Source: Diphasiastrum complanatum (lineage: Eukaryota; Streptophyta; Lycopodiopsida; Lycopodiales; Lycopodiaceae). Taken from it: DNA of 64,000 nt. A model generated the notes under the pieces. That model saw only the letters and a program-made list of their open reading frames with translations, was not told the origin of the DNA and made no database searches. Below, one piece after another: positions 15,690-40,430 of this stretch (positions are counted from its first letter, which is position 1; the number at the start of each line of letters is the position of its first letter). The position numbers and the translations under genes are program-made. The stretch spans positions 47,843,666-47,907,665 of the forward strand of contig CM055100.1 of assembly GCA_029204225.1 (NCBI GenBank). The letters run 5' to 3'.

Positions 15690-16593
15690 TGCTCTTGTTT
15701 GTACTGCATGAAAATGGCAAAAGATGTAACTAGGAGTATAAGAATTACTAGAGAATATGCAGATCCAATCTGGAAGCCTGTGCTGCCTATCCTCTTAAAA
15801 AATGTGCATGTTTGCACTCTTCATGCAGAAGTTAGATTAATAGAAAAGATCATTTATCTTCATATAGTTTTTGCTTGGAATACTAAGCCAGCATCATTAG
15901 CAAAGGAAGCTATCTCTCGATTAGAAGATGTTTTATCAAAAGCAGAACTCCATAAAGGACATGTCAAATTCAAAAAGATGAAAAGCTTTCAGGAAATAAT
16001 GAGAACATGCCAACTAAGCCAAGCATAGGAGGAGCAAAAGCACGTCGTTTTCTATCAAATCATACTGGTAAGACTTCTAATATTCAACACTCAATCTGGA
16101 CAGATATTATTGCTGCCACTCAGGACTTCGAGAAAGACGGCAAAACCAGAGTACTAAAAGTTGATGTATGGAAAAAGCTTGATAGTATGATTGCTATTTT
16201 AAGAAAAGAAAAATACTCTGATATTGATAAGAAAGCTGTCCAAAGGACTTGTGTCGAGTTTGTTAATGCAATATCAAAAGCATGGGGAGAAGATCACATC
16301 ACTCATTACATGGTTAGTATAAAATTTTCAAAATGCTTTCAAATTTTCATATATATTTAGATCTAAACATAAGACTAACATTATGATTTTGACATATGCA
16401 GCACATACTAAAAGATCATACAGCATTTTTTGCGAATACATATGGAAGCTTGAGTGTATGGTCATCACAAGGGATGGAGAAGTCACACTGGCAAGCACGA
16501 GCAACATCTCATCGAAATACACAACATGGAGGAACCAATGAAAAACGAAACTACATTTGTCAATTGTTTCAGTGGTTCTACCGCAGAGTTTAG
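15690..16593 (+). pseudogene. Transposase-like protein, C-terminal part, one frameshift
   Basis: A plus-strand coding block without an N-terminus. It reads LKNVHVCTLHAEVRLIEK and FAWNTKPASLAKEAI, then after a one-base frame break near 15985 LSGNNENMPTKPSIGGAKAR. It continues to THYM at a GT donor (exon end 16312), then exon 16402-16593 with HILKDHTAFFANTYGSL, SSQGMEKSHWQARATSH, QHGGTN and a stop. The order 'LHA..R..EK - KPS..G.KAR - HYMHIL..H - YG.L - Q..EK' resembles uncharacterised transposase-like proteins of large eukaryotic DNA transposons. That assignment is from memory of patterns and remains uncertain. The 5' part is missing at the junction with the B element. It may be the mobility protein of the 15.7-22.9 kb block. 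Confidence 0.45.
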
Positions 16594-16804
16594 TTTCGAC
16601 ATATAACAAAGTCCACACAATACAACAAGTTCAGAAAAGCATGCAAGTTCATACAGGAAGAGAAAATTAGATGATTGCTGAGTAGATCATCATTGCTGAG
16701 TAGAAGATCATCATGACATGTTCAGAATTGCTTTGCAAATTCATTGAACAAGAGAGGAGCAACACCCAATGTAAATGTATTGATTGTATTATACAAAGTG
16801 TCAA

Positions 16805-18321
16805 CTATTCATCATCAGATCTTGTATCAGATTCTATGATAGTATTGTCATGAAGAAATTCTCTGCTAGCGTATGCATCTAATAGATGTGCATTATCCTT
16901 ATTTTCACTAAGCTCAATATAAGTGGAATACAACAAATAATGGGAGCTCCTTAAAGGAACATTCCCATCAGTAAAGCCTAAAATGTTCAAAACATAAGAT
17001 CTTTTGACAAAAATGATCTTATTTGTCTTAACAAATTTATGTCCTCCTAAATAAAATGATAAAGCTTTAAATGCCATTATAAGACTCTCCCCGACTAGGC
17101 TCAGCTTGGAATGAGCAATACAGATCTCACTCTTCAAGAAATGCCGAAAATAGTGGCCCAGTCCACTGTCCCTCTGGAACAAGGATGCGTGTTGTCTGAA
17201 ACCACCTCGTCTCGCAGCAAAATCATCTATTATGAGAGCATCCTGCAATAGGAAATATGTTAGCAAAAACACATTCAATGATTGAAAACATTCAAATGCA
17301 AGGAAGATTAAACACTTACACATTCTTCATTATCAGCAGCAACCAGATCAGGATGATCAATATAATGACCACGTACTGAAGTGGAATCATCAGTGAAATG
17401 CATTAATGATGGACGAGGGAAGCCCATCTGGGATTGAAATGCCGTGAATTCTTCATTGGATGGTCTGCCTTGCCCATCCTCAACTATATTTGATAAAGTC
17501 TTATTCAGACATTCTTCACCGGTCATAAGACCCTCCTCATCATCAAAATCAATACCAGCAACAAGGTCATCTGTCTCAAAATCTACAAAGTCGGAGAATT
17601 CAAAAATTGTGCCGGATAATAAACATAGAATATCGTCCTCACGATAGTCAAAAAATTTACATAAATCAGTAGTAGTAAGATATACATCGTCATTAATATA
17701 ATATACAGGCAAATTGAAAAGACATTTCGAATCCTCCATAGATTTGGATTCATCATCAGATGTATTTTGGCCAATGAAAGAATCTCGGAGAACATCAGTA
17801 TTTAAATAAAAGAATTCACTTTTTCTATCAAGAGTGTCGATAAGAAAGTGATTGATATCCTTAATGGCTGATTGAACAGAGGAGGGTGCAAAAGGAGGGC
17901 CAGCAACAGGAAACTCATCATCATCTGGAATCTGAACTAAAAGAAAAAGTACGAAACCACTCTGATATTCAACCAATCGACATTTCTTGTTGCAATACGG
18001 ACACACAGAACTACTTTTGAAAAGATCAAACAATTTGGTGAACATTTTATCCAGTCTATGTCTAAAAGCTGAGAAGAAATGAACAAGATCAGTATAATGC
18101 ATGTACTGGAGCTGACCTATGGAGAAAACAGGCTTGCTAAGTATATCTTTGAATTTGACATAATGTTCATAAAATACGTCAAAATTTGGTGGTGCAGTCC
18201 TGAAAACATGTAGATGTGGCTTGAGTAGGCTGTGGAAGTAGTCCAGATTTTCAGTAATCCCAAATTCACTCAGAAATGAACTCAAGCCTGATTCTCGTGA
18301 AGATGATGAGGAAGAGGCCAT
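16805..18321 (-). CDS. Intact two-exon protein with a CxxC-xxx-C zinc-binding cluster, unknown family
   Basis: Exon 1 is 18321-17320 and exon 2 is 17242-16805 (GTAAGT donor, TTGCAG acceptor). Together they give an uninterrupted 479-residue protein, the only undamaged gene of the 15.7-22.9 kb block. The start chosen is the ATG at 18321 (MASSSSSSRESGLSS); an in-frame upstream ATG at 18369 would add 16 residues. Around residue 110 lies CPYCNKKC, a probable zinc-binding knuckle, preceded by a helical segment (HYTDLVHFFSAFRHRLDKMF). The middle is acidic (DDEEGLMTGEE). Exon 2 has DFAARRGGFRQHASLFQR and GHYFRHFLKSEICIAHSKL, conserved-looking but unrecognised. It is transcribed divergently from the histone-protease gene. 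I do not recognise the family. A role in the element's DNA binding or transposition is only a guess from context. Confidence 0.6.
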
Positions 18322-19156
18322 GACAGTAGCGTGAATATCGCACTTGTGAACGTGGGAGAACTGAACCAAAACTAACTATCAAAATGACACAGAAGATGGA
18401 TATGTACGGCAGACAGATACATAATATCGCATTTGTGCACGAGTAGGTATATTTGCAAGCAAACGGACAGCAATGAGCGCGCACAAAAGCGATATGTCGC
18501 GAATTTCGAGAATGCAAAAGGTAAAAAATTATTCGGTTTCTGTGCCATTTATACTAAATTTTTGCACGTGTGGTCAACGGACTTATGACACGTGTCTACT
18601 TTCAATTCGACAACAGGCACAGGCACGTGTGAGATGACACTTGCACATGTGTGAAATGACATCTAGACACGTGTCGCATGTTCATTCGATTGCTCATAAA
18701 CACGTGTCGCTCTCGCATTCGATCGTACAAATTTCAAATGTGTAGTGTGACAGGGTGACACGTGTCGCTCTCGCATTTGTTTGTACAACTCCCACACGTG
18801 TGACAGGACGTTCTTTCGCACGTGCGAACCCCAATATAAAATCACAAATTTCGATGAATTTTTTTCACTTTTTTTTTTTTCGTTTCGCATATCGAATTTC
18901 TGCGCGCCCTTCACAATCAAAATTCCTCTTACTACCTTCCATGCGCACAGGTTCGATACGTCTACCTACATGTCACCCCATATCGCACTTGTGCGTCTTT
19001 CCTCAAATCTAATCGGTCTCTCTAATATTCGGCTCGCATAGGTCCGATATACCGTACATTTTGTCTGTACATAGCGGTCCTCTACGTGTTCTTTATCATC
19101 CCTTCCTTCTCATCCTAACCTTCACGCACAAGTCTACTATCACATAGTTCACGCCC
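18322..19156. promoter_or_regulatory. Shared divergent promoter region with an array of eight CACGTG palindromes
   Basis: Between the starts of two divergent genes. CACGTG occurs at 18565, 18589, 18624, 18668, 18701, 18759, 18795 and 18819, mostly as (A)CACGTGT, plus a degenerate CACATG at 18644. A separate 14-bp word, ATATCGCA(C/T)TTGTG, occurs at 18335, 18424 and 18980. A segment of about 24 bp starting TCGCTCTCGCATT is repeated at 18707 and 18765. CACGTG is the plant G-box bound by bHLH and bZIP factors. Repeated copies near a transposon's genes could equally be binding sites for an element-encoded protein. Confidence 0.6.
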
Positions 19157-20887
19157 ATGGATAGGAGAAAGCAGACAAGGAGAGACTTCTTCTCTCCTGG
19201 CTAATCCTCATCTCCTGCGGTTGCCATCACACCACTTGCTAGACCTAGAACGCGCAACCGCAGCAAGTGGCTCTCTGAGATACGCAAGTATCAGAGGTCA
19301 ACAACTCTGTTGATCCCAAGAGTTCCATTCTACCGTGTTGTCCGGAACATAACAAGAAATGATCTCGGACAGCACGCTAGATTCACACTAAGTGCTCTTC
19401 GGTGCCTTCAGGAGGCTGCTGAAGATTATATTAGCCTTTTTTTTTAGGATTTTTTTTTGCTTGCCATTCATACCAAGAGGGTTACCATAATGCCCAAGGA
19501 TTTTCAGCTTCTGATGAGAATGAGGGATAGGTACTGTAGGTTATATGTATCTCAGCCTACTGCTCCTAGACCAACTCCCGTAGATAGGACTCATCTTCCT
19601 ATGAAGCATCCTAGGAAGCAGACAGCTCCCAAGCGTGCTCCTAAGAAAGTGAAGCCTATCCCAGAATCCATTGTAGATAATGCTGTTGTTGATAGTGCTG
19701 TAAATATAGCTACCTCTGTTTTGGATACTCCTATAATTGTTGTAGATACTACACATCCACCACCTCCTCCTCCTCCCAATTTCTATACATATATAGATTC
19801 GGATGATTACCTTAAATTTGAGAAAGACATATCGGATGCTATAGATACAATTGGTACTCCTTTTTGTTTTAGACTAGAAGAACTTGATTTTAGTATTAAT
19901 TTTAGAGTTCTAGATTGCATGGATCTCAAAGACAGACGGGCTTCTATCAGTGATCCTGTGATAGTGTCCGGGCTGACACTCTTGCAGTTTGACATTGCAA
20001 GAGATTCATCAAACGAGTTGCTGGTGCTGAATAACTTTATGCTTCAGGCCTTCAAGGAGAAGAATGACACATTGTCATAGTGTCTGACAAGTGGATTCAC
20101 ACCAGCAACAAAGTATCTGGTCATTCCTTATCATACCAAGTAGGATATATTAAGTGCTTCTTCCTGTTTTATGCATTAACATTGACATTTTCAATTTAAA
20201 TAGTTCTCAGAATTGTCGCTAAAGTACTTCAATCTTATTTTGCAGTGACCACTAGAGATTAAACGTGATCTCTATTAAGAGATCTGTAAATAATATTATT
20301 AAATGTTCTTGTGTCAAGATGAATTTGGCAAAAAATACGCATAAGAATGTAGATATATTCATTCCATATCTAAGTAAATATATTCCTACAGACGTTTCCC
20401 ATTCCGTGGACTGGCAGATCGTCAGCTTGGAGGTAAACTTTGTCTTTCTTAATAGCATTTTGAAATCAGTATTCTAATGAAATATTTTCAATCTAATTCA
20501 TTCTGTTTCATAATTGATTTTTTTGTGTGCTGAATTATTTTGCAGTCACCCCAGCAAAATGATTCATTCAACTGTGGGTGGTACACATTGTACAATGCCA
20601 AGTTGTTTTTTGAGTGGTTCATCCTTCAACAAGATGTTGATATTTCTAAGGTAATAAATTCTGTTTATTCTTATTTTGGAATCATGATTAGTTTTTTATT
20701 CTGGTGATGTTATTGGCCATTACTAATACATGAATATTCTACTTTGCAGTTTACACTTCCTGAGTACACATCAAGCCAGGTATACAGATTTAGACAAGAA
20801 ATTATCCTGAGTATACTGGCTAGGGCAAGGCTTCAGCCTCCCGTTATTGATGATGGTGCAAAGGATGATGTAGTACTACTAAATTAA
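19157..20887 (+). pseudogene. Centromeric-H3-like histone fold fused to a C48 (Ulp1/SENP) cysteine protease, four in-frame stops
   Basis: Exons 19157-20139, 20246-20432, 20546-20650, 20750-20887 keep one frame through three GT-AG introns (470 codons). Residues 3-9 (RRKQTRR) resemble the H3 tail around Lys4. Residues 41-60 (EIRKYQRSTTLLIPRVPFYR), 84-92 (LQEAAEDYI) and 103-116 (AIHTKRVTIMPKDF) are the H3 alpha-N, alpha-2 and alpha-3 signatures. AAEDY, KDF and a loop 1 one residue longer than in canonical H3 favour CENH3. After a Lys/Pro-rich linker with seven prolines comes the protease: LNNFMLQAF (near 293), KYLVIPYHTNDH with the catalytic His (codon 330), WQIVSLESPQQN and the nucleophile in NCG (Cys codon 400). 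The position of the catalytic Asp appears substituted. Stops at codons 16, 97, 308 and 331 (the Trp after the His) inactivate it, yet there are no frameshifts. Histone and first protease motif share exon 1, so the fusion is not a splice-prediction artefact. Confidence 0.82.
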
Positions 20888-21082
20888 GATCAGAAAAATT
20901 ATAGATAACATAGAACAAAAATACATGTATAGACTTCATAGAAAAATATACATTGATATATCAAATGCTGCTCCAGTTTATGAATTTGGGAGCACAAAAT
21001 ACATGTACAGATGCCCAACTTGGGCTTTCATTTATTGAATGAAAGGGTGTATACACAGATTTTTACTATAGTTTATTTGAAA

Positions 21083-22455
21083 CTATTGTTCTCCCACAAT
21101 GGTGATTGTTGTAGGTAGATCTTTGCAGCACGTTATCAGCTCCTGTCTTTTTCGCATCTGTGACATGGCAAATATAAGTGAATGTGCAATTGTAAACGAT
21201 GACATTTTCTATTATTTTGTTCTATTTTGAAATGGCAATAAACATTAAAGTACTTACGAGTCTTCCGTTGATGAGAAATCTAAAATATGTTGGTAGATTG
21301 GTTTGTAATAGCATGAGCTCTGTTATGATAAAATCAAGCTTCCAGTGCTCTTCCACCTCAACCATAGTCAAATATTTCTCATTGTAGATAATGCTTATCT
21401 CCATTCGGTTTGTGTGACCATTTAGTTCAAAGTCTTGATCCAGTGGTAGCCATGTACCTTCAATTTTCTTGTATCTCTGGTAGCTAAATGTGAGACTGAG
21501 CATTTGCTTTTCGATATGATAACGAAAGATCGTTGAGGACTTTTTAATCCTGCATTCTATGTCATTATTTGTTTTACTATCCCAGCCTGATCCATGAGAT
21601 CTGACAAAGTCTCATCTGATAAATCCTTGCAAACAAATAAAGTTGGTGTCCTACGAACATTAACACTCGAGAAAAAATCAACAAATGTATGCAATGAGAT
21701 AAACCAACTTAGGTGAACAATTTTCGAGCCTGTGCTTATCTTCATAGCATTTTTAATATCAATGAGTAGCTTGCATCTCAAGGATTCGAAAACAATGCTG
21801 TCAGGAGTAGGCCACTCATCACTTTGAAAACTAGGCAATGGAATTGCTTCGAGCTTGCCAAAACCTCCATCTGTCTGTGGCGTATATAAAGATTCATAAA
21901 AATAAATACCACAATCTGCAAGTTCCTTTGGACTTCTTCCTCTGTATTGTAGCTTTCCAACATCAAAGTGAATCACGTCTAATATTCCTACAAGTGATTG
22001 TGCGGGCTCCCATTCACTTATGCATGATGGATATAAATCTGAAAGAAAAAAACAATGTTGAAGCATTTAAATCATAATCTGAAAAGCATCAATAAAGGAA
22101 ATCATCTATGATTGCTGTAGAGTGCATATGTTTTGATATACTTACAATTACATTTTTTATGATCATGAGGATTGATATCATGTACTTTGATTTTTGAATG
22201 CATATATACATGTTGCACTAAGACTTCTGATATCAATTGACCTCCCGGGATAGTCTTAAACTCCAAAATTTTTGCCTTCCAATAAGATTTGTAAGTCATT
22301 TTTGCTCTTTTCTTTTGTCGAAAATTGCCCTTTGATGATGGATGCAGCAACACCCATGAGTTCTTTGTATATTTTGTTGGCTTCCAGTTATCAGCTTCAT
22401 CTTTCTCATTGTAAAGAATCACAGAATCGATTGTAGATCTGGGTCTCCTCGCCAT
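21083..22455 (-). pseudogene. BAH-domain-like protein, three exons, one frameshift
   Basis: Exons 22455-22146, 22038-21258 and 21157-21083 are joined by GT-AG introns with matching phases; stop TAG at 21085-21083. The start is the ATG at 22455 (MARRPRSTIDSV); an upstream ATG at 22467 is also in frame. The first 130 residues have the order expected of a bromo-adjacent-homology (BAH) chromatin-reader domain: NSWVLLHPSS, then YWKAKILEFK, a beta-strand pair ISEVLVQHVYMHS, then LYPSCISEWEPAQSLVGILD, like the ELF-S-H-D-x-IP-x-S-I-x-GK segment. The remainder (FGKLEAIPLPSF, FVDFFSSVNVRRTPTLFV) is unrecognised. A one-base shift near 21583 breaks exon 2. It lies convergent to the histone-protease gene and about 460 bp from the block's terminal repeat. 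BAH assignment is by pattern only. Confidence 0.5.
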
Positions 22456-22885
22456 TGCTATTTTCAAAGCTTGGGCGCCAAAAATCTCTCTGATATGTTA
22501 CTTAATTTTAATTTTTCGTATCACATTTAATCTAATGTGAATGCCAACATAGTCACAGTTACTGCGTATACCATATTTTATGTAACTGTACATACTATAT
22601 TTCTATAACTATAACTAGTATAGTTAGAAAATTTCATTATACTAACCAGCATAGTAAAGTAAATTTAACTTGAGATATTGACATCGGGCAAATTAGCACA
22701 TGTCGAGCAGGAAGAAGAAACCAATGGGATACGTCCATGCTGCCCGGACACAAATTTCAAAGTTTTCTATATTGCATTTTTATTTTTTAGATAATTTGAA
22801 CTATGTTACGTAGATTTCAAATATGTGCATTTTTATTGGGCCTGATGACGGTCGAAACTAAAGAAAAAAATAAAAGTATCTTTAC
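22456..22885. other. Right flank of the gene block, presumed BAH-gene promoter
   Basis: AT-rich, no coding frame. It lies between the BAH-like start codon and the terminal repeat at 22886, so it should hold the promoter and subterminal sequence of the element. Confidence 0.4.
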
Positions 22886-22920
22886 AAAGGGTCTTTTTGA
22901 TATTGAGAACTCCTCTAATG
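22886..22920 (+). repeat. Terminal repeat of the gene block, copy 1
   Basis: Thirty-five bases identical to 27922-27956. Read outward-in on the minus strand it begins TAGAGGAGTTCTCAATATC. Its outer edge (22917) is followed by ATG and directly by copia C pol sequence. The second copy has copia C protease sequence at its outer edge. Removing the repeat at each side rejoins the two copia halves in frame with an AT duplication. This fits a terminal inverted repeat of a DNA transposon that inserted in copia C. Confidence 0.7.
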
Positions 22921-24111: not shown

Positions 24112-25015
24112 AAATGCAACACTTACATGCAGTTTCTGACAAACGACAATTAGGGCAAAAAGTGACACTGCATTTTTACATGTAGTTTCTGACAGGCAAA
24201 AAACTTGACACTACAGTTTTACACGAGATACTACACAGGCGACACTCTACATAAATACACAGTATTCCATGTACATACTGTCTACGTACGCTTCAATAAC
24301 AACTGTTCAAATCAGGCAGTTAATCAACTATTAAGCAATCTTGTAAATGTAAAGATAGAATAATACAACATCTTCCAATTGCTATAAATGTAAATGAGTG
24401 ATGAAGATATTATACATAAGTCATTATAAGTCGTCTTATATCAGAGGATGATCTGACAGAGATACAACGACCAGAACGGGTCTTTCAATAGCTAACTCCT
24501 CAGAGTTAGTGATTATATATATAGAGAGAGAGATATTCAGAATGTTAGCAATTGTTTTGAATCTGTAAGTAGGATCACGCGCTTATCAACGCAATTGTAT
24601 TGTGATCTGATCGTTATTACTACAACTTTATTATATAGATTCGCTATTGTTCTACATCCTTTTGCATTCTTGTTGAATGATAATGACTCTCACTCCTCTT
24701 ACACAAACATTATTATCATAGAATTGTATGGCTATCTTTGATGCCTAAATTGATTCTACATTCTCTTCATATAAGGTTATCAATAATAGAGGATTGCATG
24801 GCTGTCTTAGATGCCTAATCGTTTTTCCGCAATCTCTCTTTCACGGCAGTCTAAGACTCCTACACTGATAATCTGATTCAACGCAAAAGAACAGCTCATA
24901 ACTCCATTCTCTAAGTAATCCACGATCCTGTTATTAAGAATTTTGTTTCATCAATTGACATCAATCTAAATGTCCACCGATGTGGTATCAGAGTTGATGA
25001 TTTCTATTTTTTCCT
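24112..25015 (+). mobile_element. C-type LTR with primer-binding site
   Basis: About 870 bp closely similar to 37930-38790 (shared words include TTTTTACATGTAGTTTCTGA and TATATATAGAGAGAGAGAT). It is followed by TGGTATCAGAG at 24983-24993, the initiator tRNA-Met primer site, and a leader (TTGATGATTTCT) matching the minus-strand leader at 29341-29362. It directly follows the truncated copia C pol and is cut at about 25015 by copia A sequence in the other orientation. Confidence 0.7.
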
Positions 25016-26473: not shown

Positions 26474-27921
26474 GTCAGGGTGATGTAGGTATGCACGATC
26501 CGGTGAAGCTATGGGATAGCGTCTTTCACCAAGAGAAATAGCACTCAAAGAGTCTCAGGAGACAGGACTCCATGGCCAGAACTCTCTCAGTAGTTCGGTG
26601 ATTGTTGAGCGGAGCGGATCGTAAGAAAAAATAGGGCAGTGGCAACTCAAAGCTGAGTGGATTTTGCAATCCATTTATAGTGGGAAGAGAAAGAAGCAAT
26701 TTTGGGAACTGGCAAAAAGTGGCCTAGTTGAAGAAAAACGCAAAGTCACGGATCTTTCTCTGTACTTGATGGAATTGGGCACTGTAAATTGCTACCCATG
26801 AAGGTTCTACTGAGGCCAAGCTAATCCTAGAAGAATGGAGTCAGCCATGAAGCATGTCAAGAGCAATTGCCTTTCTCTCAGGCTATGGAAGGAAAAAGCC
26901 TGCTAGGGTTTACAGTCTAAAAACCGAAGAGTTATCTCAATAGGAAACCTTTTGTGGTCCTGTAACTAGTTGAAGATGGGCATTTTTGGAGGGCGACCTC
27001 AGTCAAGTGGAATGCTGCAAGATGAATCCCAGAACAAGTCTGAGAGACACGCAAGAAAATTGCATTTCTTGACAACTAGGGTTTCTATTGATAAGTTCAT
27101 GGATCTTTCTTCATTGTCAGTGTTTTTCAGATTGGTGAAATCACAGTGAAGGTCGCACTGGCAAGACGAAATGGCTTGGAGATGGTCGTGGATGGCCGCG
27201 GCCTATAGAAGGAGGCTTGAAGTTTCGAAGTGCAAAAATGAAAAAACTTCATTAAAAAAATTTCATATTGAAATGGAAATTGGGATCGGCTTGAAATATG
27301 GGCTAGCTTGGAGGTACACACATTTTGGCGATCACAGGTGATGGAAGTGCGAGGTGGTGCCAGTTGGAAGCCATTGGGCAAGATAGCGGACTTGCATTGG
27401 ACGAGCTGTGTGTGGGACACGCAGAGGATGAAGAAGAGTCAATAATCACACTTTGGATGCTCTTGGCGAGTGGTGAGTGTGATGATTTTGCGGTTTTGCA
27501 GTCCGTAAGTCAATTTTGATTAAGTCATTGTAGCTGTGGAGCAGTGTATAAGGTTTGTCATCGAAGAGATACACTTCAACTGCCAGTTTGGATAAGTCAA
27601 GTCAATTTGCCATATCAGTATTGCATCAGGGATGCAGATTTCAGTGATGATAGGGTGCAAATCATTTGGTTTGGGCCATGAAAGATCTCACAGGGTCAGT
27701 TGGAGGGATATAAAATATTGTTCTTTTCGTAACCAATGGAGGGAATATTTTTGAATTTAGTCAAGTTATACTACGAACTGTTAACAATTCTTAACTGTGA
27801 CTATAGACACTGTGGTTAGATCATTGGGAGTTGGGGAGGCCTTGGAGTGGTGTGGGCAAGCAAATAAATAATATTGTTTTATTTATTTTGATATTTTTGT
27901 ATATCCTACATGGCATTCCTT
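26474..27921 (+). mobile_element. B-element leader and junction DNA, non-coding
   Basis: Follows the B primer-binding site. No gag frame is recognisable. The short frames at 27127-27519 show no motif. The last about 80-100 bp before 27922 may be the inner flank of the terminal repeat. The exact boundary is not visible. Confidence 0.35.
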
Positions 27922-27956
27922 AAAGGGTCTTTTTGATATTGAGAACTCCTCTAATG
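27922..27956 (+). repeat. Terminal repeat of the gene block, copy 2
   Basis: Identical over 35 bases to 22886-22920 and in the same orientation. Its outer edge meets the end of the copia C protease frame (minus strand), exactly where copy 1 meets the start of the missing half. Two direct-oriented copies at matching insertion points imply that the two halves were inverted relative to each other after the insertion. Confidence 0.7.
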
Positions 27957-29365
27957 CAAATTTTCTTCTCTAAAAGTAGAGAGGATTTCTTTTGAATTCT
28001 CATCTAAAATAGTACATCGGTTGGCAGTGAACAAAGCTCTATAGCCCTGATCTGTAATCTTGCTAATAGACAATAGGTTCTTTGTTAACTTGGGTACATA
28101 AAGTACACCATTAAGCTGCCTAGTGATGCCATCAGAGAATTGTAGTCGAATAGAGCCTTGGCCTTCGACTTGATGTGAACTGGAGTCACCAAAAAAGATA
28201 TACTTTGATTCTGTAGCTGTGAGTGTAGAGAAAAGGTCTTTGCATGGCGTCATGTGCTGAGAAGCACCTGAATCGAGATACCATTGAAGGGCATCTCTAC
28301 TGGGTTGATCTTGTACCATCAGCGCTTTATCACCATCTTGCGAACCTCTAACTATGTCAGAGTTGCCTTCTTGTTGTTGCTGCATCTTCTTCCTCGCTTC
28401 ATTGTGCTTGAGGACGCGACAGTCTTTGATGTCGTGGTTGGTTCTTTTGTAGTATCTACAAAATAGCTTGGTCTTGGATGATGATTAACTGTGTTGCTGT
28501 TGTTGTGGTTGTGATGCTACTGGTTGTTCTGTCTTTGTCTTCTTATCCTTGAAGTCTTTCTTCTTCTTGGATTGCTGTTTGTTTGAGTAAAGTGCCATGG
28601 ATTTGGTACTTGTTGTCGTAGACAAGCTTTTCCTCCTAACTTCTTCCTGCAACAAACTTGCTATCAATTTTTGGAGAGAAAGCCCAGGAGTATTGCTAAG
28701 GAGCAATACTAAATTGTCGTAGGAGGATGGAAGACTGGCAAGAAGAGACATGGTAGAGTGTTATTCTGAGATAGGCAAACCTATTGCAGCCAACTGGTTT
28801 AGCAACTGTTTGAACTCATTCAGATGGTCGCTAACTGAGGTGCCTTCAGTCATTCTAAGTGTCAGTACCTTCTTCCTCAAAAAGAGACGAGTGGAAACAT
28901 ATGAGGTCTCGTAGATGCTTGTACGGATGTCCCATGCTTCTTTGGAGATGGTGTTGTTTGATACATGAGCAATCTGAGTATCCTTCAGATTCAGGGATAC
29001 AATGACAAGTGCTTTGCCATCGTGTGCTTCCCATGCTGGAAGCAGTTCAGGTTCTGCCGGTTTGGCTATTGAATCATTTACGCATCCCCAAAGCTCCTTC
29101 TCGATCAAGATCATCCTCATCTTAAATTTCCACATGTGAAAGTCATCTTCGTTGAATTTGTTGATCAAGCGGATCTCTGAGGTTGAACCTTCCATTGTAA
29201 TCGAGTAGCAGAGATAAAACACAAATTGAATGAACCAGTTTTATAGAACTAGAACGTATTAAGTTCTATTATAAGTCCTAGAATCTAATGATCTGATAAA
29301 CCTGTGGCTCTTATACCACTTTTGTGGGATGCGAGAAATAGAAATTATCAACTCTGATATCATGG
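27954..29365 (-). mobile_element. Copia C, gag-protease half with primer-binding site
   Basis: Minus-strand gag starts at the ATG at 29194 (MEGSTSEIRLINKF, UBN2-type gag with FHMWKFKMRMIL). It continues LLASLPSSYDNLV, a lysine-rich linker and a decayed zinc-knuckle region near 28480-28400. Protease follows: WYLDSGASQHMTPC, KYIFFGDSS, LYVPKLTKNLLSISKI. The frame runs into the terminal repeat and stops at 27953. A primer-site relic (TGATATCAGAG) lies upstream at 29352-29362. Two or three frame breaks lie in gag. Confidence 0.8.
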
Positions 29366-31190: not shown

Positions 31191-31705
31191 GGAAATTAAG
31201 CTTCCAGTTTTCTCCTTGGAATTATGAATCTTTGTTTTGCTACCTGCATTTTTATCGTGTTTTTGAAAACAGATGCAGAACTGCAAAACTACTCTATTTC
31301 TGCGTGCAAACTTTCACTTGGTAAAATACACGGGATCTTGCACATAGTCCATAATTTGGATCAAAGAGTAACCAATTCTGATTCATTTCAACATTCGAAT
31401 GTCAAGAATCTGAAGTACATTGAAGGCCTGGCCACCTTTAATGTCTTCAACATCATTTGAGCCCTTTTACGGTTCAAAAGCGGTCCAAATGCAATCGACA
31501 ACAAAACTGCAACATGCCAAAGGCAACAGCTACGGTTTATGTGCTAAAGCAACAAGCCATTAAGCACTGCAAAGTCAATATTGCGAAGACCAAAGGAAAA
31601 TCGCAACACTACGGTTTTTTACGTGCTAAGGCAACAAGTCGTTAAGCACCACAAAGTCAAAACAACGAAGACTAAGGAAAACTGCAACCTACATGCTAAG
31701 GAAGA
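31191..31705. other. Unassigned repeat-derived DNA
   Basis: No gene is recognisable. The right part (from about 31570) contains diverged copies of the 39-bp unit annotated next. Confidence 0.4.
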
Positions 31706-31861
31706 CCGCCAAGCACCATTACGGTTTCTACGTGCAAAGGCCGACCGCCATGCACCACTACGGTTTCTATGTGCAAAGGCAAACTGCCATGCACCACTAT
31801 AGTTTCTACGTGCAAAGGCAAACCGCCAAGCACCACTGCGGTTTCTACATGCTAAGGCAAG
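31706..31861. repeat. 39-bp tandem repeat, four units
   Basis: Four 39-bp units, each starting C(C/T)GCCA(A/T)GCACCA and containing (A/G)GTTTCTACGTGC(A)AAGG. Diverged partial units lie on both sides (about 31600-31700 and 31862-31890). The length is a multiple of three, so open frames run through on both strands. There is no evidence that it is coding. Confidence 0.85.
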
Positions 31862-31889
31862 CCGCCAGGCACCTCCGAAGGGAAACCGC

Positions 31890-37929: not shown

Positions 37930-38790
37930 CATAAAATGCGACACTGCATTTTTACATGTAGTTTCTGACAGGCGACAATTAGGGCAAAAAGCGAGACTAT
38001 ATTTTTACATGCAATTTCTGACAAGTGAAAAATCTGACACTGCAGTTTACACGAAATACTACACATGCGACACTCTACAAAAATACACACAATATTCCAT
38101 GTACAGACTGTCTACGTCTTCACGTTCCAATAACAACTGTTCTAATCAGGTAGATAATCAGTTGTTAAGCAATCTTGTAAATGTAAAGATAGAATAATGC
38201 AAGATCTTCCAGTTGCTATAAATGTAAATGAGCGATTGAAGATATTATACATAAGTCATTATAAGTCATCTTATATCAGAGGATGATTTGACAGAGATAC
38301 AACGACCAGAACAGGTCTTTCAGTAGCTGACTCCTTAGAGTTAGTGATTATATATATATAGAGAGAGAGATATTCAGAACGTTAGCAATTGTTTTGAATC
38401 TGTAAGTAGGATCACGCGCATATTAGCGCAATTGTATTGTGATCTGATCTTTGTTACTACAAATTTGCTATTGTTCGACATCCTTTTGCATTCTTGTTGA
38501 ATGATAATAATTCTCACTTCTCTTACACAAACATTATTATCAGAGAAATGTATGATTGTCTCTGACGCCTAAATTGATTCTACATTCTCTTCATATCAGG
38601 TTATCAGTAATAGAAGATTGCATAACTGTCTCAGATGCTTAATCATTTTTCTGCAATCTCTCTTTCATGGCAGTCTAAGACTCCTACACTGATAATTTGA
38701 TTCAACGCAAAAGAACAGCTCATAAATTCCATTCTCTAAATAGTCCACGATCCTGTTATTAAGAATTTGGTTTCATCAGTTGACATCAAT
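37930..38790 (+). mobile_element. Solo C-type LTR
   Basis: Closely similar to 24112-24980 over its length in the same orientation. The left side contains partial internal duplications of the unit with TTTTTACATG and TTTCTGACA. No primer site or gag follows on the right, so it is a solo LTR or truncated element. Confidence 0.7.
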
Positions 38791-40430
38791 CCAAACGTCA
38801 ACATGTACACATCTCTTGGATGCAAAGGTGGGTTTTGGATTTGCCTAATTGGTAGCTCTAATGTTTTCCATCTAGATGACATATACAATTTCTTCTCCTT
38901 CAGTTTTATATGACTATAATTTTTTTTCTTTGCATGGATCTTCACACTTGGTGACAAAGACTACATGTGTCTTACCTTTGCACTCATATGCAACATATCC
39001 TTCCTCATCACAACTTAGCTTATACATGTTGGATTTATTCCTCTACTCTCTTAAATCTCATGCTAATCTATTTCCATTCATATAGCTATGGTTTTACATG
39101 CATTGTCGCACAATTTGCAAAACTATTCTATTAATTAAAAACAGGCATCAGAATGGCAACCGACTTGGTCGTGGCACGCTCGGCTCCGAATAGTCAAAGC
39201 CTTCTCATGCCACTTCTTGTATTATGCAACTACCTTGACAATGACAATAGCAGCCCCAATCTACTCAAGACGACGCAACAGTTCTATTCCCTTCTTGTAC
39301 ATAGATCTACACAATTGTAAATTATATATAGAGATAACAATTTTAACCAAATATACAATCAGAGACAGACATTGTAGATGCTTTCATGCATCGATTTTTC
39401 CTTTCAGACTGATTGTCAGTAATAAGCTCATAGCTTTTACAGAGCGGAGTTAGCTTCCTGATCATGCGGTTTTGCCCGCAATTGTCTTGTGTGCTCATCG
39501 CATCAATCTGACTTGTATTTGCATACACATTAATCTGAATCGACTATTGTCTTGTTGTTGCGTTTAGATATTTGTCAGCGTTGCATGCTTTTGCTATTTC
39601 GTTTTCTGTTTGACTCTCTTACTACTTTGTCTGACTGTCTGCTCTTCTCGCTTCTGCAGCACAAATAATTTCTCTGTGTTCACCTACGTAATCCAAATCT
39701 ATGACATAGTCTATTCGTAATCTCTTACATAATGAATAGAGTATTTTTTTATACAAGGTGAAATATATCCTGATAAAATAAGGATCCATGATGACTTTGT
39801 AACATGTGATAGATTTATCGAAAAATATATGTATCCAAATCTTGCGTCACGCAGTGCATGCACGGAGGAGATTCCACTTTCTCCCGACAATACACTCGAC
39901 ATGACTTCTAGTCAAGCATTGAGGTATCTTTCTTTTAGCTTGCAATGTACACAATTGAGCTTTTGAATCGTCCATTTTCTTCAATTGTTTTGCTAGATCT
40001 CTCTTCCATAGAATTTTCTCTTATGAGTCATGTTTCTTAACTTCAACTTCTTTATATCTTCATGATGTCAACTTCATCTTTTTACAAACTTATCCTATCA
40101 AAATGTTTCTAAATCTAAACTACAATTACTCGTGGTTGTCTCAATATTGAAATCTATTTCTATCTCCCCAAATGAGCTATCACTTTTTTTTTTCTCTTTA
40201 TCAATATTTTAGGTCTTCTCATTCTCTATATGTGAGAAGTTTCACAATTTTTCACAATAGTGATTACGTCTTCCAACTGGTTCATTTGGCCTTGCTTGTA
40301 GTATCAATCCATTTTCTTTGGTAATCCATCTAAAAACCATTTGATTTGCATCGTTGTGGGATAGTAATGTAGTCAAACTTATCGATTTATCCTGCACTTA
40401 GGAACTACTTGAGGCACTATAGACAACTAT
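38791..40430. other. AT-rich DNA, no gene recognised
   Basis: Short frames only, none with motifs. The stretch CCTTTGCACTCATATGCAACATATCCTTCC region (about 38970-39010) resembles antisense copia linker sequence but is too short to assign. Confidence 0.35.

What the first reader, a model, noticed from the sequence alone, without database searches (positions are those of the whole stretch)
19157..20887. A histone H3 fold fused to a Ulp1/SENP-type cysteine protease
One reading frame, continuous through three phase-matched introns, encodes an H3 core (EIRKYQRST, PFYRVVR, LQEAAEDY, AIHTKRVTIMPKD) and then a C48 protease (PYHTNDH, WQIVSLESPQQN, NCG). The histone and the start of the protease share the first exon, so the fusion does not depend on splice prediction. 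C48 proteases are known in plant Mutator-like and other transposons. A histone-fold fusion to one is, as far as I know, undescribed. Such a protein could be built into nucleosomes and remove SUMO or related modifiers locally.
Basis: partly seen in the sequence, partly recalled or inferred. Interest (0 to 1): 0.9.

Follow-up and report, generated by a model that had tools for sequence, protein, structure and literature searches.

The report
Jumping gene encoding histone-protease fusion
A clubmoss genome carries a many-copy jumping gene that encodes a histone H3 joined in one protein to a SUMO-protease-like domain, with undamaged copies elsewhere in the genome; the combination seems undescribed and may help the element to escape silencing.

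Summary
The H3-C48 fusion is real. In this window it is a damaged copy: no frameshift, splice sites kept, but four in-frame stops (codons 16, 97, 308, 331). I fetched 30 of them, picked mainly for long open frames: 20 are the same element (family A), 1 a sister (B21), 9 a distant lineage (C). Two of 21 family-A copies keep all 470 codons open through the same three introns; one scores Histone 1e-27 and Peptidase_C48 1.1e-10. Selection is purifying on the H3 part, and on C48 in 2 of 3 pairs. The gene lies in a 9-kb DNA transposon with 35-bp terminal inverted repeats and four genes: transposase-like T, B, H3-C48, D. Lineage C has an H3 without C48. The H3 keeps many nucleosome-contact residues, but its tail lacks K9 and K27. 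Best guess: an anti-silencing or chromatin-targeting protein. The triad Asp is usually missing, so protease activity is open. Ten literature searches listed no such fusion.

The parts
15694..22920 (+). Remnant of a family-A transposon (genes T, B, H3-C48, D); its left end is missing here
   Evidence: 94-95% DNA identity over about 7 kb to two copies that have both ends
22886..22920 (-). Right 35-bp terminal inverted repeat
   Evidence: 35 of 35 match to the left terminus of copy A19; found at the right end of 6 of 10 further copies
27712..27956 (-). Left-end 245 bp of the same element type, inverted, 5 kb away
   Evidence: 94-96% to the left ends of copies A15 and A19
15694..16608 (+). 3' part of gene T (transposase-like), one intron and one frameshift
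   Evidence: tblastn pieces 58-89% in family A copies, 36-49% in lineage C copies; A against C 45% over the aligned part; translation
16805..18321 (-). Gene B, two exons (18321-17320, 17242-16805, set by eye), open throughout; unknown fold
   Evidence: translation; homologues in copies A13, A15, A17, A19, B21; no Pfam match of note
18322..19156 (.). Region between the divergent genes B and H3-C48, with ACGTG-containing repeats
19157..20139 (+). Exon 1 of H3-C48: tail with K4-type tip, H3 fold (about codons 37-124), linker, start of C48; stops at codons 16, 97, 308
20246..20432 (+). Exon 2: catalytic His codon 330 (20250-20252), stop at codon 331 (20253), Asp site codon 348 reads Cys
20546..20650 (+). 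Exon 3: Gln394 and Cys400 (20573-20575) of C48
20750..20887 (+). Exon 4 and terminal stop
21222..22455 (-). Gene D, about two exons (22455-22144, then from 22039; set by eye) with at least one frameshift here; function unknown
   Evidence: homologues in A13, A15, A17, A19 and in lineage C copies C09, C23, C27

Best explanation
SHOWN: the locus is a decayed copy of a many-copy DNA transposon, about 9 kb, with 35-bp terminal inverted repeats and four genes. One gene encodes a single 470-residue protein: an H3-type histone fold followed by a Ulp1/C48 protease-type domain. Two intact copies were found, and the H3 part (less firmly the C48 part) has been under purifying selection. INFERRED: the host is Diphasiastrum complanatum; the H3 half pairs with H4 and places the protein in or on chromatin. 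Its tail keeps the K4 tip but lacks K9 and K27 and their ARKS context, so such nucleosomes could not take the H3K9me2 and H3K27 marks that silence plant transposons (roles of these marks recalled). The C48 half acts locally on SUMO or a related modifier, or binds it without cutting. Net effect: an anti-silencing factor, or a chromatin tether, of the transposon. Identity about 0.95; anti-silencing mechanism about 0.35. The confidence given is for the whole statement.
For: Two intact copies and the shared splice pattern. Pfam on intact copy A19: Histone 97.3 bits, C48 42.2 bits. Of 20 fetched family-A loci, 19 have C48 downstream of H3; in A17 it is missing after a deletion. Same four genes in the same order in A13, A15, A17, A19 and the window; inverted repeats at the ends. 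Median dN/dS between subfamilies over 110 non-independent pairs: H3 0.13, C48 0.31, linker 0.56; bootstrap upper bounds for H3 0.26-0.36 in 3 of 3 pairs, for C48 0.50 and 0.54 in 2 of 3. R69, R83, K115, R116, T118, K122 in 21 of 21 copies, H113 in 20, D123 in 19; first 36 codons hold 0-2 lysines. An older lineage, B21b, has H3, linker and C48 pieces at 44-58% identity, decayed. Precedent for Ulp1-domain genes of plant transposons whose carriers counter silencing: KIU/VANC, PMC13317346, passages, which also say that the function of the Ulp1 domain is unknown.
Against: No expression, protein or localisation data. The triad Asp is present in 2 of 20 other copies only. Pair A19-A13 gives C48 dN/dS 0.66 with an interval that includes 1. 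Only 2 of 21 copies are intact. H3 residues R63 and R49 are mostly Pro and Ser; R72 is kept in 16 of 21. Lineage C has H3 without C48 (no match at E up to 1 in 5 of 5 copies with 20 kb read), so such elements do not all need the fusion. No target-site duplication seen in 3 copies with both ends.
Confidence: 0.5

Rival explanations
1. Chromatin-targeting rival: the H3 fold (with H4 or a histone chaperone) tethers the transposition machinery to chromatin or chooses target sites; the C48 half processes SUMO on the transposase or repair factors. Silencing is not the issue.
For: H3 fold conserved under selection; an H3 gene without C48 stands beside T- and D-type genes in lineage C. PMC2836005 (passages) proposes that transposon Ulp1 and OTU domains act in transposition or repair.
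Against: No direct evidence; does not explain a retained K4 tip with loss of K9 and K27.
Confidence: 0.3
2. Decoy rival: the protein binds up H4, H3 chaperones or H3K4 readers, and C48 is a dead SUMO-binding module; it perturbs host chromatin without entering nucleosomes.
For: Triad Asp missing in 18 of 20 other copies; Cys present in 15 of 20. R63 is Pro in 18 of 21, R49 is Ser in 18 of 21.
Against: His (18 of 20) and Gln (19 of 20) retained; C48 part under constraint in 2 of 3 pairs.
Confidence: 0.2
3. Two neighbouring genes or chance frames wrongly joined (artefact).
For: Stops at codons 308 and 331 separate the domains in this copy; the stretch 225-316 has no significant match on its own.
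Against: Copies A15 and A19 are open from ATG to stop; 19 of 20 fetched family-A loci have C48 downstream of H3.
Confidence: 0.03

Closest known systems
KIU (VANC with Ulp1 domain) of Vandal-type Mutator-like elements; ULP genes in MULEs
   Same: C48/Ulp1 domain in a multi-gene plant DNA transposon; possible anti-silencing role (PMC13317346 and PMC6117577, passages)
   Different: 'histone' occurs 0 times in the main text of either paper; gene T has no Pfam transposase match and no target duplication was seen here
H3L of the Pyrenophora tritici-repentis hAT-type element
   Same: histone H3-like gene inside a terminal-inverted-repeat DNA transposon in many copies (PMC3538342, passages)
   Different: Fungal; the passages report a separate H3L gene and a hAT transposase and mention no C48 fusion
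Ginger1 transposons
   Same: Ulp1 domain in a DNA transposon (PMC2836005, passages)
   Different: There Ulp1 is a C-terminal domain of the transposase; 'histone' occurs 0 times in that paper's main text
Centromeric H3 (CENH3)
   Same: QEAAED, RFT and an extra loop-1 residue recall CENH3 (CENH3 features recalled)
   Different: Outside the CENH3-like group in the free trees; undecided, for a tree holding them together was 3.7 log units better in one set and 1.5 worse in the other (AU p 0.64, 0.455)
P0002, unnamed Logan assembly protein, 322 aa
   Same: H3 part groups with family A and B21a (96/95); long C-terminal extension
   Different: No C48 match; its tail against the window's linker and C48 start is near noise (47 of 500 and 460 of 500 shuffles as good); long branch

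Membership tests
Histone H3 fold | Significant match to the core histone profile | tested here: met
   1e-26 in the window, 1e-27 in an intact copy
Histone H3 fold | alphaN, alpha1, alpha2, alpha3 topology; closest folds are H3 | tested here: met
   Low-to-moderate model (pLDDT about 57-78 in that part, mean 52.8) with the four helices; the 50 PDB matches shown are nucleosome entries, best E 1.2e-5, TM about 0.5 on the target, rmsd 8 A, 53% identity, so largely carried by sequence. TAG was read as Glu
Histone H3 fold | Nucleosome incorporation | not testable with these tools
   Many contact residues kept, R63 and R49 not; no experiment
CENH3 | Phylogenetic placement with CENH3 | tested here: inconclusive
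Peptidase C48 (Ulp1/SENP) | Profile match above curated cut-off | tested here: met
   26.1 and 42.2 bits against 20.7
Peptidase C48 (Ulp1/SENP) | His, Gln, Cys of the active site | tested here: met
   18, 19 and 15 of 20 other copies, damaged ones included; all three in the window
Peptidase C48 (Ulp1/SENP) | Catalytic Asp | tested here: not met
   Cys in the window; others Gly 9, Cys 8, Asp 2, Tyr 1 of 20; the site was placed by alignment to recalled Ulp1 and SENP8 sequences
TIR DNA transposon | Terminal inverted repeats with homology ending at them in several copies | tested here: met
TIR DNA transposon | Target-site duplication | tested here: not met
   0 of 3 copies with both ends, judged by eye from printed flanks
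Mutator-like, KDZ or hAT superfamily | Pfam transposase profile on gene T | tested here: not met
   No transposase family up to E 1 for the lineage C gene T or up to E 10 for the window piece; a full family-A T was not scanned

The most novel reading that the evidence does not exclude
An unrecognised superfamily of multi-gene DNA transposons carries its own histone H3 as a standard component: an H3 whose tail cannot take the silencing marks, in one branch fused to a SUMO-protease-type domain, so that the element makes its own silencing-resistant chromatin.
Probability: 0.3. Interest if true: 0.93.

Novelty: new variant of a known kind. Interest (0 to 1): 0.84.

Why it matters
Transposons are silenced largely through marks on histone H3. 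An element that encodes its own H3, without the main silencing lysines and linked to a SUMO-protease-type domain, would be a new counter-move in that conflict. It would also make a direct test possible: does a transposon-made histone enter chromatin and protect the element? It further offers a source of odd H3 variants and a ready histone-enzyme fusion.

Tried and rejected
Two-gene or artefact reading: rejected by intact copies. CENH3 origin: suggestive motifs, trees cannot decide. P0002 as a second intact fusion: its tail does not match C48. Viral contigs, 6 scans, and genome contigs, 2 scans: no relatives. Three protein searches (each limited to a length range): the 8, 22 and 79 proteins listed all bear PF00125, none PF02902. 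NCBIfam: nothing for the fusion. Gene B fold: useless model, pLDDT 33. Rfam: no match in the window. Copy number beyond: not obtained, because the genome search answered once only. Target-site duplication: not found in 3 copies.

Full report
OBSERVATION. Pfam finds Histone (1e-26, residues 28-123) and Peptidase_C48 (8.8e-6, residues 317-441). In exon 1 the frame has 3 stops against 24 and 29 in the other forward frames; 0 of 5000 Markov resamples matched its 210-codon open stretch. The C48 half scores above all of 1000 shuffles against yeast Ulp1 and against human SENP8 (sequences recalled); the stretch 225-316 does not (410 and 338 of 1000 as good).

THE HOST GENOME. The genome search answered once. 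It placed the window at G000:C9:47843666-47907665 in a 1.74-Gb assembly. Contig C3 (82,785,387 bp) has exactly the length listed for the contig of a Diphasiastrum complanatum protein (P0075); hence the host name, an inference. The histone profile gave 153 matches, with 6325 first-look candidates of which 150 were scored. Of the rows listed, 13 score 163-165 bits (taken as canonical H3); then comes a gap to 109.5 bits and a long list of divergent H3 folds, many in open frames near 330 codons. The 140 lower matches include the window's own copy and may include host variants such as CENH3.

COPIES. I fetched 30 of these divergent loci, chosen mainly for long open frames and therefore not a random sample: ten with 20 kb each and twenty with 2.6-2.9 kb. 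By tblastn, 20 are the window's element (family A), 1 is a sister (B21) and 9 belong to a distant lineage, C, with H3 45-51% identical. All 16 family-A loci and 3 of 4 have C48 downstream; in A17 it is missing after a deletion. With the window, 21 family-A copies were aligned. Two (A15, A19) are open through all 470 codons with good splice sites. Six of 21 have no stop in exon 1, and 11 of 21 keep all splice dinucleotides. Intact A19 scores Histone 1e-27 and C48 1.1e-10.

CONSTRAINT. Between the two subfamilies (110 non-independent pairs) median dN/dS is 0.13 for H3, 0.56 for the linker and 0.31 for C48; within subfamily 1 it is 0.54, 1.08 and 0.54, as expected if many copies are dead. Bootstrap over codons in three pairs: H3 upper bounds 0.26-0.36 in 3 of 3; C48 upper bounds 0.50 and 0.54 in two pairs, but an interval of 0.29-1.72 in A19-A13, where A13 is cut short; the linker intervals include 1 in 3 of 3. 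The introns differ by 6-8% only, although H3 dS is about 0.5; this mosaic is unexplained, perhaps recombination between subfamilies.

THE ELEMENT. Copies A13, A15, A17, A19 and the window share the order T(+), B(-), H3-C48(+), D(-). Homology ends at a 35-bp inverted repeat; A15 spans 9305 bp and A19 about 8.7 kb. The same repeat was found on the right side of 6 of 10 and on the left side of 2 of 10 further copies examined. Three copies show both ends (A15, A19 and the C16 copy); by eye none has a target-site duplication. In the window the left part is missing (homology starts at 15694), and a 245-bp left end lies inverted at 27712-27956. Gene T of families A and C is 45% identical over the aligned part and contains, in family A, GDLKTLKCMY...CLYC and QGMEKSH, which I recall as motifs of RNase-H-type transposases; Pfam gives no transposase. 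So 'transposase' is a likely label, not a tested one.

OTHER LINEAGES. In lineage C the H3 fold ends a protein with a long proline-rich N-terminal extension (seen in C09, C11, C23). Around it tblastn finds D in 3 of 5 copies (C09, C23, C27) and T in 3 of 5 (C11, C23, C25); C23 has both, and B-like frames are seen by eye in C11 and C23. No C48 was found within 20 kb in 5 of 5 copies at E up to 1. B21 holds one H3 with a different C-terminal extension and a second, decayed stretch, B21b, with H3, linker, C48 start and exon 2 at 44-58% identity. All these lineages were reached through their H3, so elements with T, B and D but no H3 would have been missed. The H3 tree groups family A, B21a and the unnamed assembly protein P0002 (96/95). 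Whether C belongs with them is not settled (AU p 0.107; held tree 20 log units lower; with P0002 added, support 50/2.8). A CENH3 origin is neither shown nor excluded.

MOLECULAR READING. In 21 copies R69, R83, K115, R116, T118 and K122 (H3 numbering; their roles as DNA contacts are recalled) are invariant, H113 is in 20, D123 in 19 and R72 in 16. R63 is Pro and R49 is Ser in 18 each. The tail reads mostly MDRRKQTRRDFFSPG: the K4 tip is recognisable, the K9 and K27 contexts are gone, and the first 36 codons hold 0-2 lysines. At the protease site His, Gln and Cys stand in 18, 19 and 15 of 20 other copies, damaged ones included; the Asp site is Gly 9, Cys 8, Asp 2, Tyr 1. The model of the H3 part has the H3 helix order, at pLDDT about 57-78, and its PDB matches shown are nucleosome entries.

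INTERPRETATION. Shown: a real, selected, transposon-borne H3-C48 fusion with two intact copies. Inferred: chromatin entry, resistance to K9/K27-based silencing, and SUMO-related action. The nearest functional precedent is KIU/VANC of Vandal elements (PMC13317346, passages). The nearest histone precedent is H3L in a fungal hAT-type element (PMC3538342, passages). In print: ten searches listed nothing that by title or start of abstract describes an H3-C48 fusion. Searches listed only 20 of 29, 52 and 53 papers, and the library lacks most subscription papers. [quoted passage not shown] it does not treat this case.

Noticed in passing
window 16805-18321: Gene B is open throughout (two exons) although its neighbours T, H3-C48 and D are broken; no Pfam match of note.
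   Followed up: partly
window 27712-27956: Inverted left end of the same transposon, near a Copia-type gag (28764-29240): rearrangement or second fragment.
   Followed up: partly
family-A loci, codon 331: The Trp after the catalytic His is TAG in 6 and TGA in 1 of 20 other copies; recurrent G-to-A changes may reflect decay of methylated cytosines.
   Followed up: no
family-A loci, exon 1 versus introns: Between subfamilies H3 synonymous divergence is about 0.5, while introns differ by 6-8%: a mosaic gene, unexplained.
   Followed up: no
proteins P0010, P0012, P0015, P0017, P0018, P0020: H3 folds at the C-terminus of long unfamiliar N-terminal extensions, listed from ENA with no name, a layout like lineage C; possibly other mobile elements.
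   Followed up: no
L009-L012, L023-L028 (lineage C): Distant element lineage with an H3 protein bearing a very long polyproline stretch and no C48 found.
   Followed up: partly
window 24123-24974 and 37952-38799: Direct duplication of about 860 bp at 89% identity.
   Followed up: no
window 31689-31873: Short-period tandem repeat inside an open frame.
   Followed up: no
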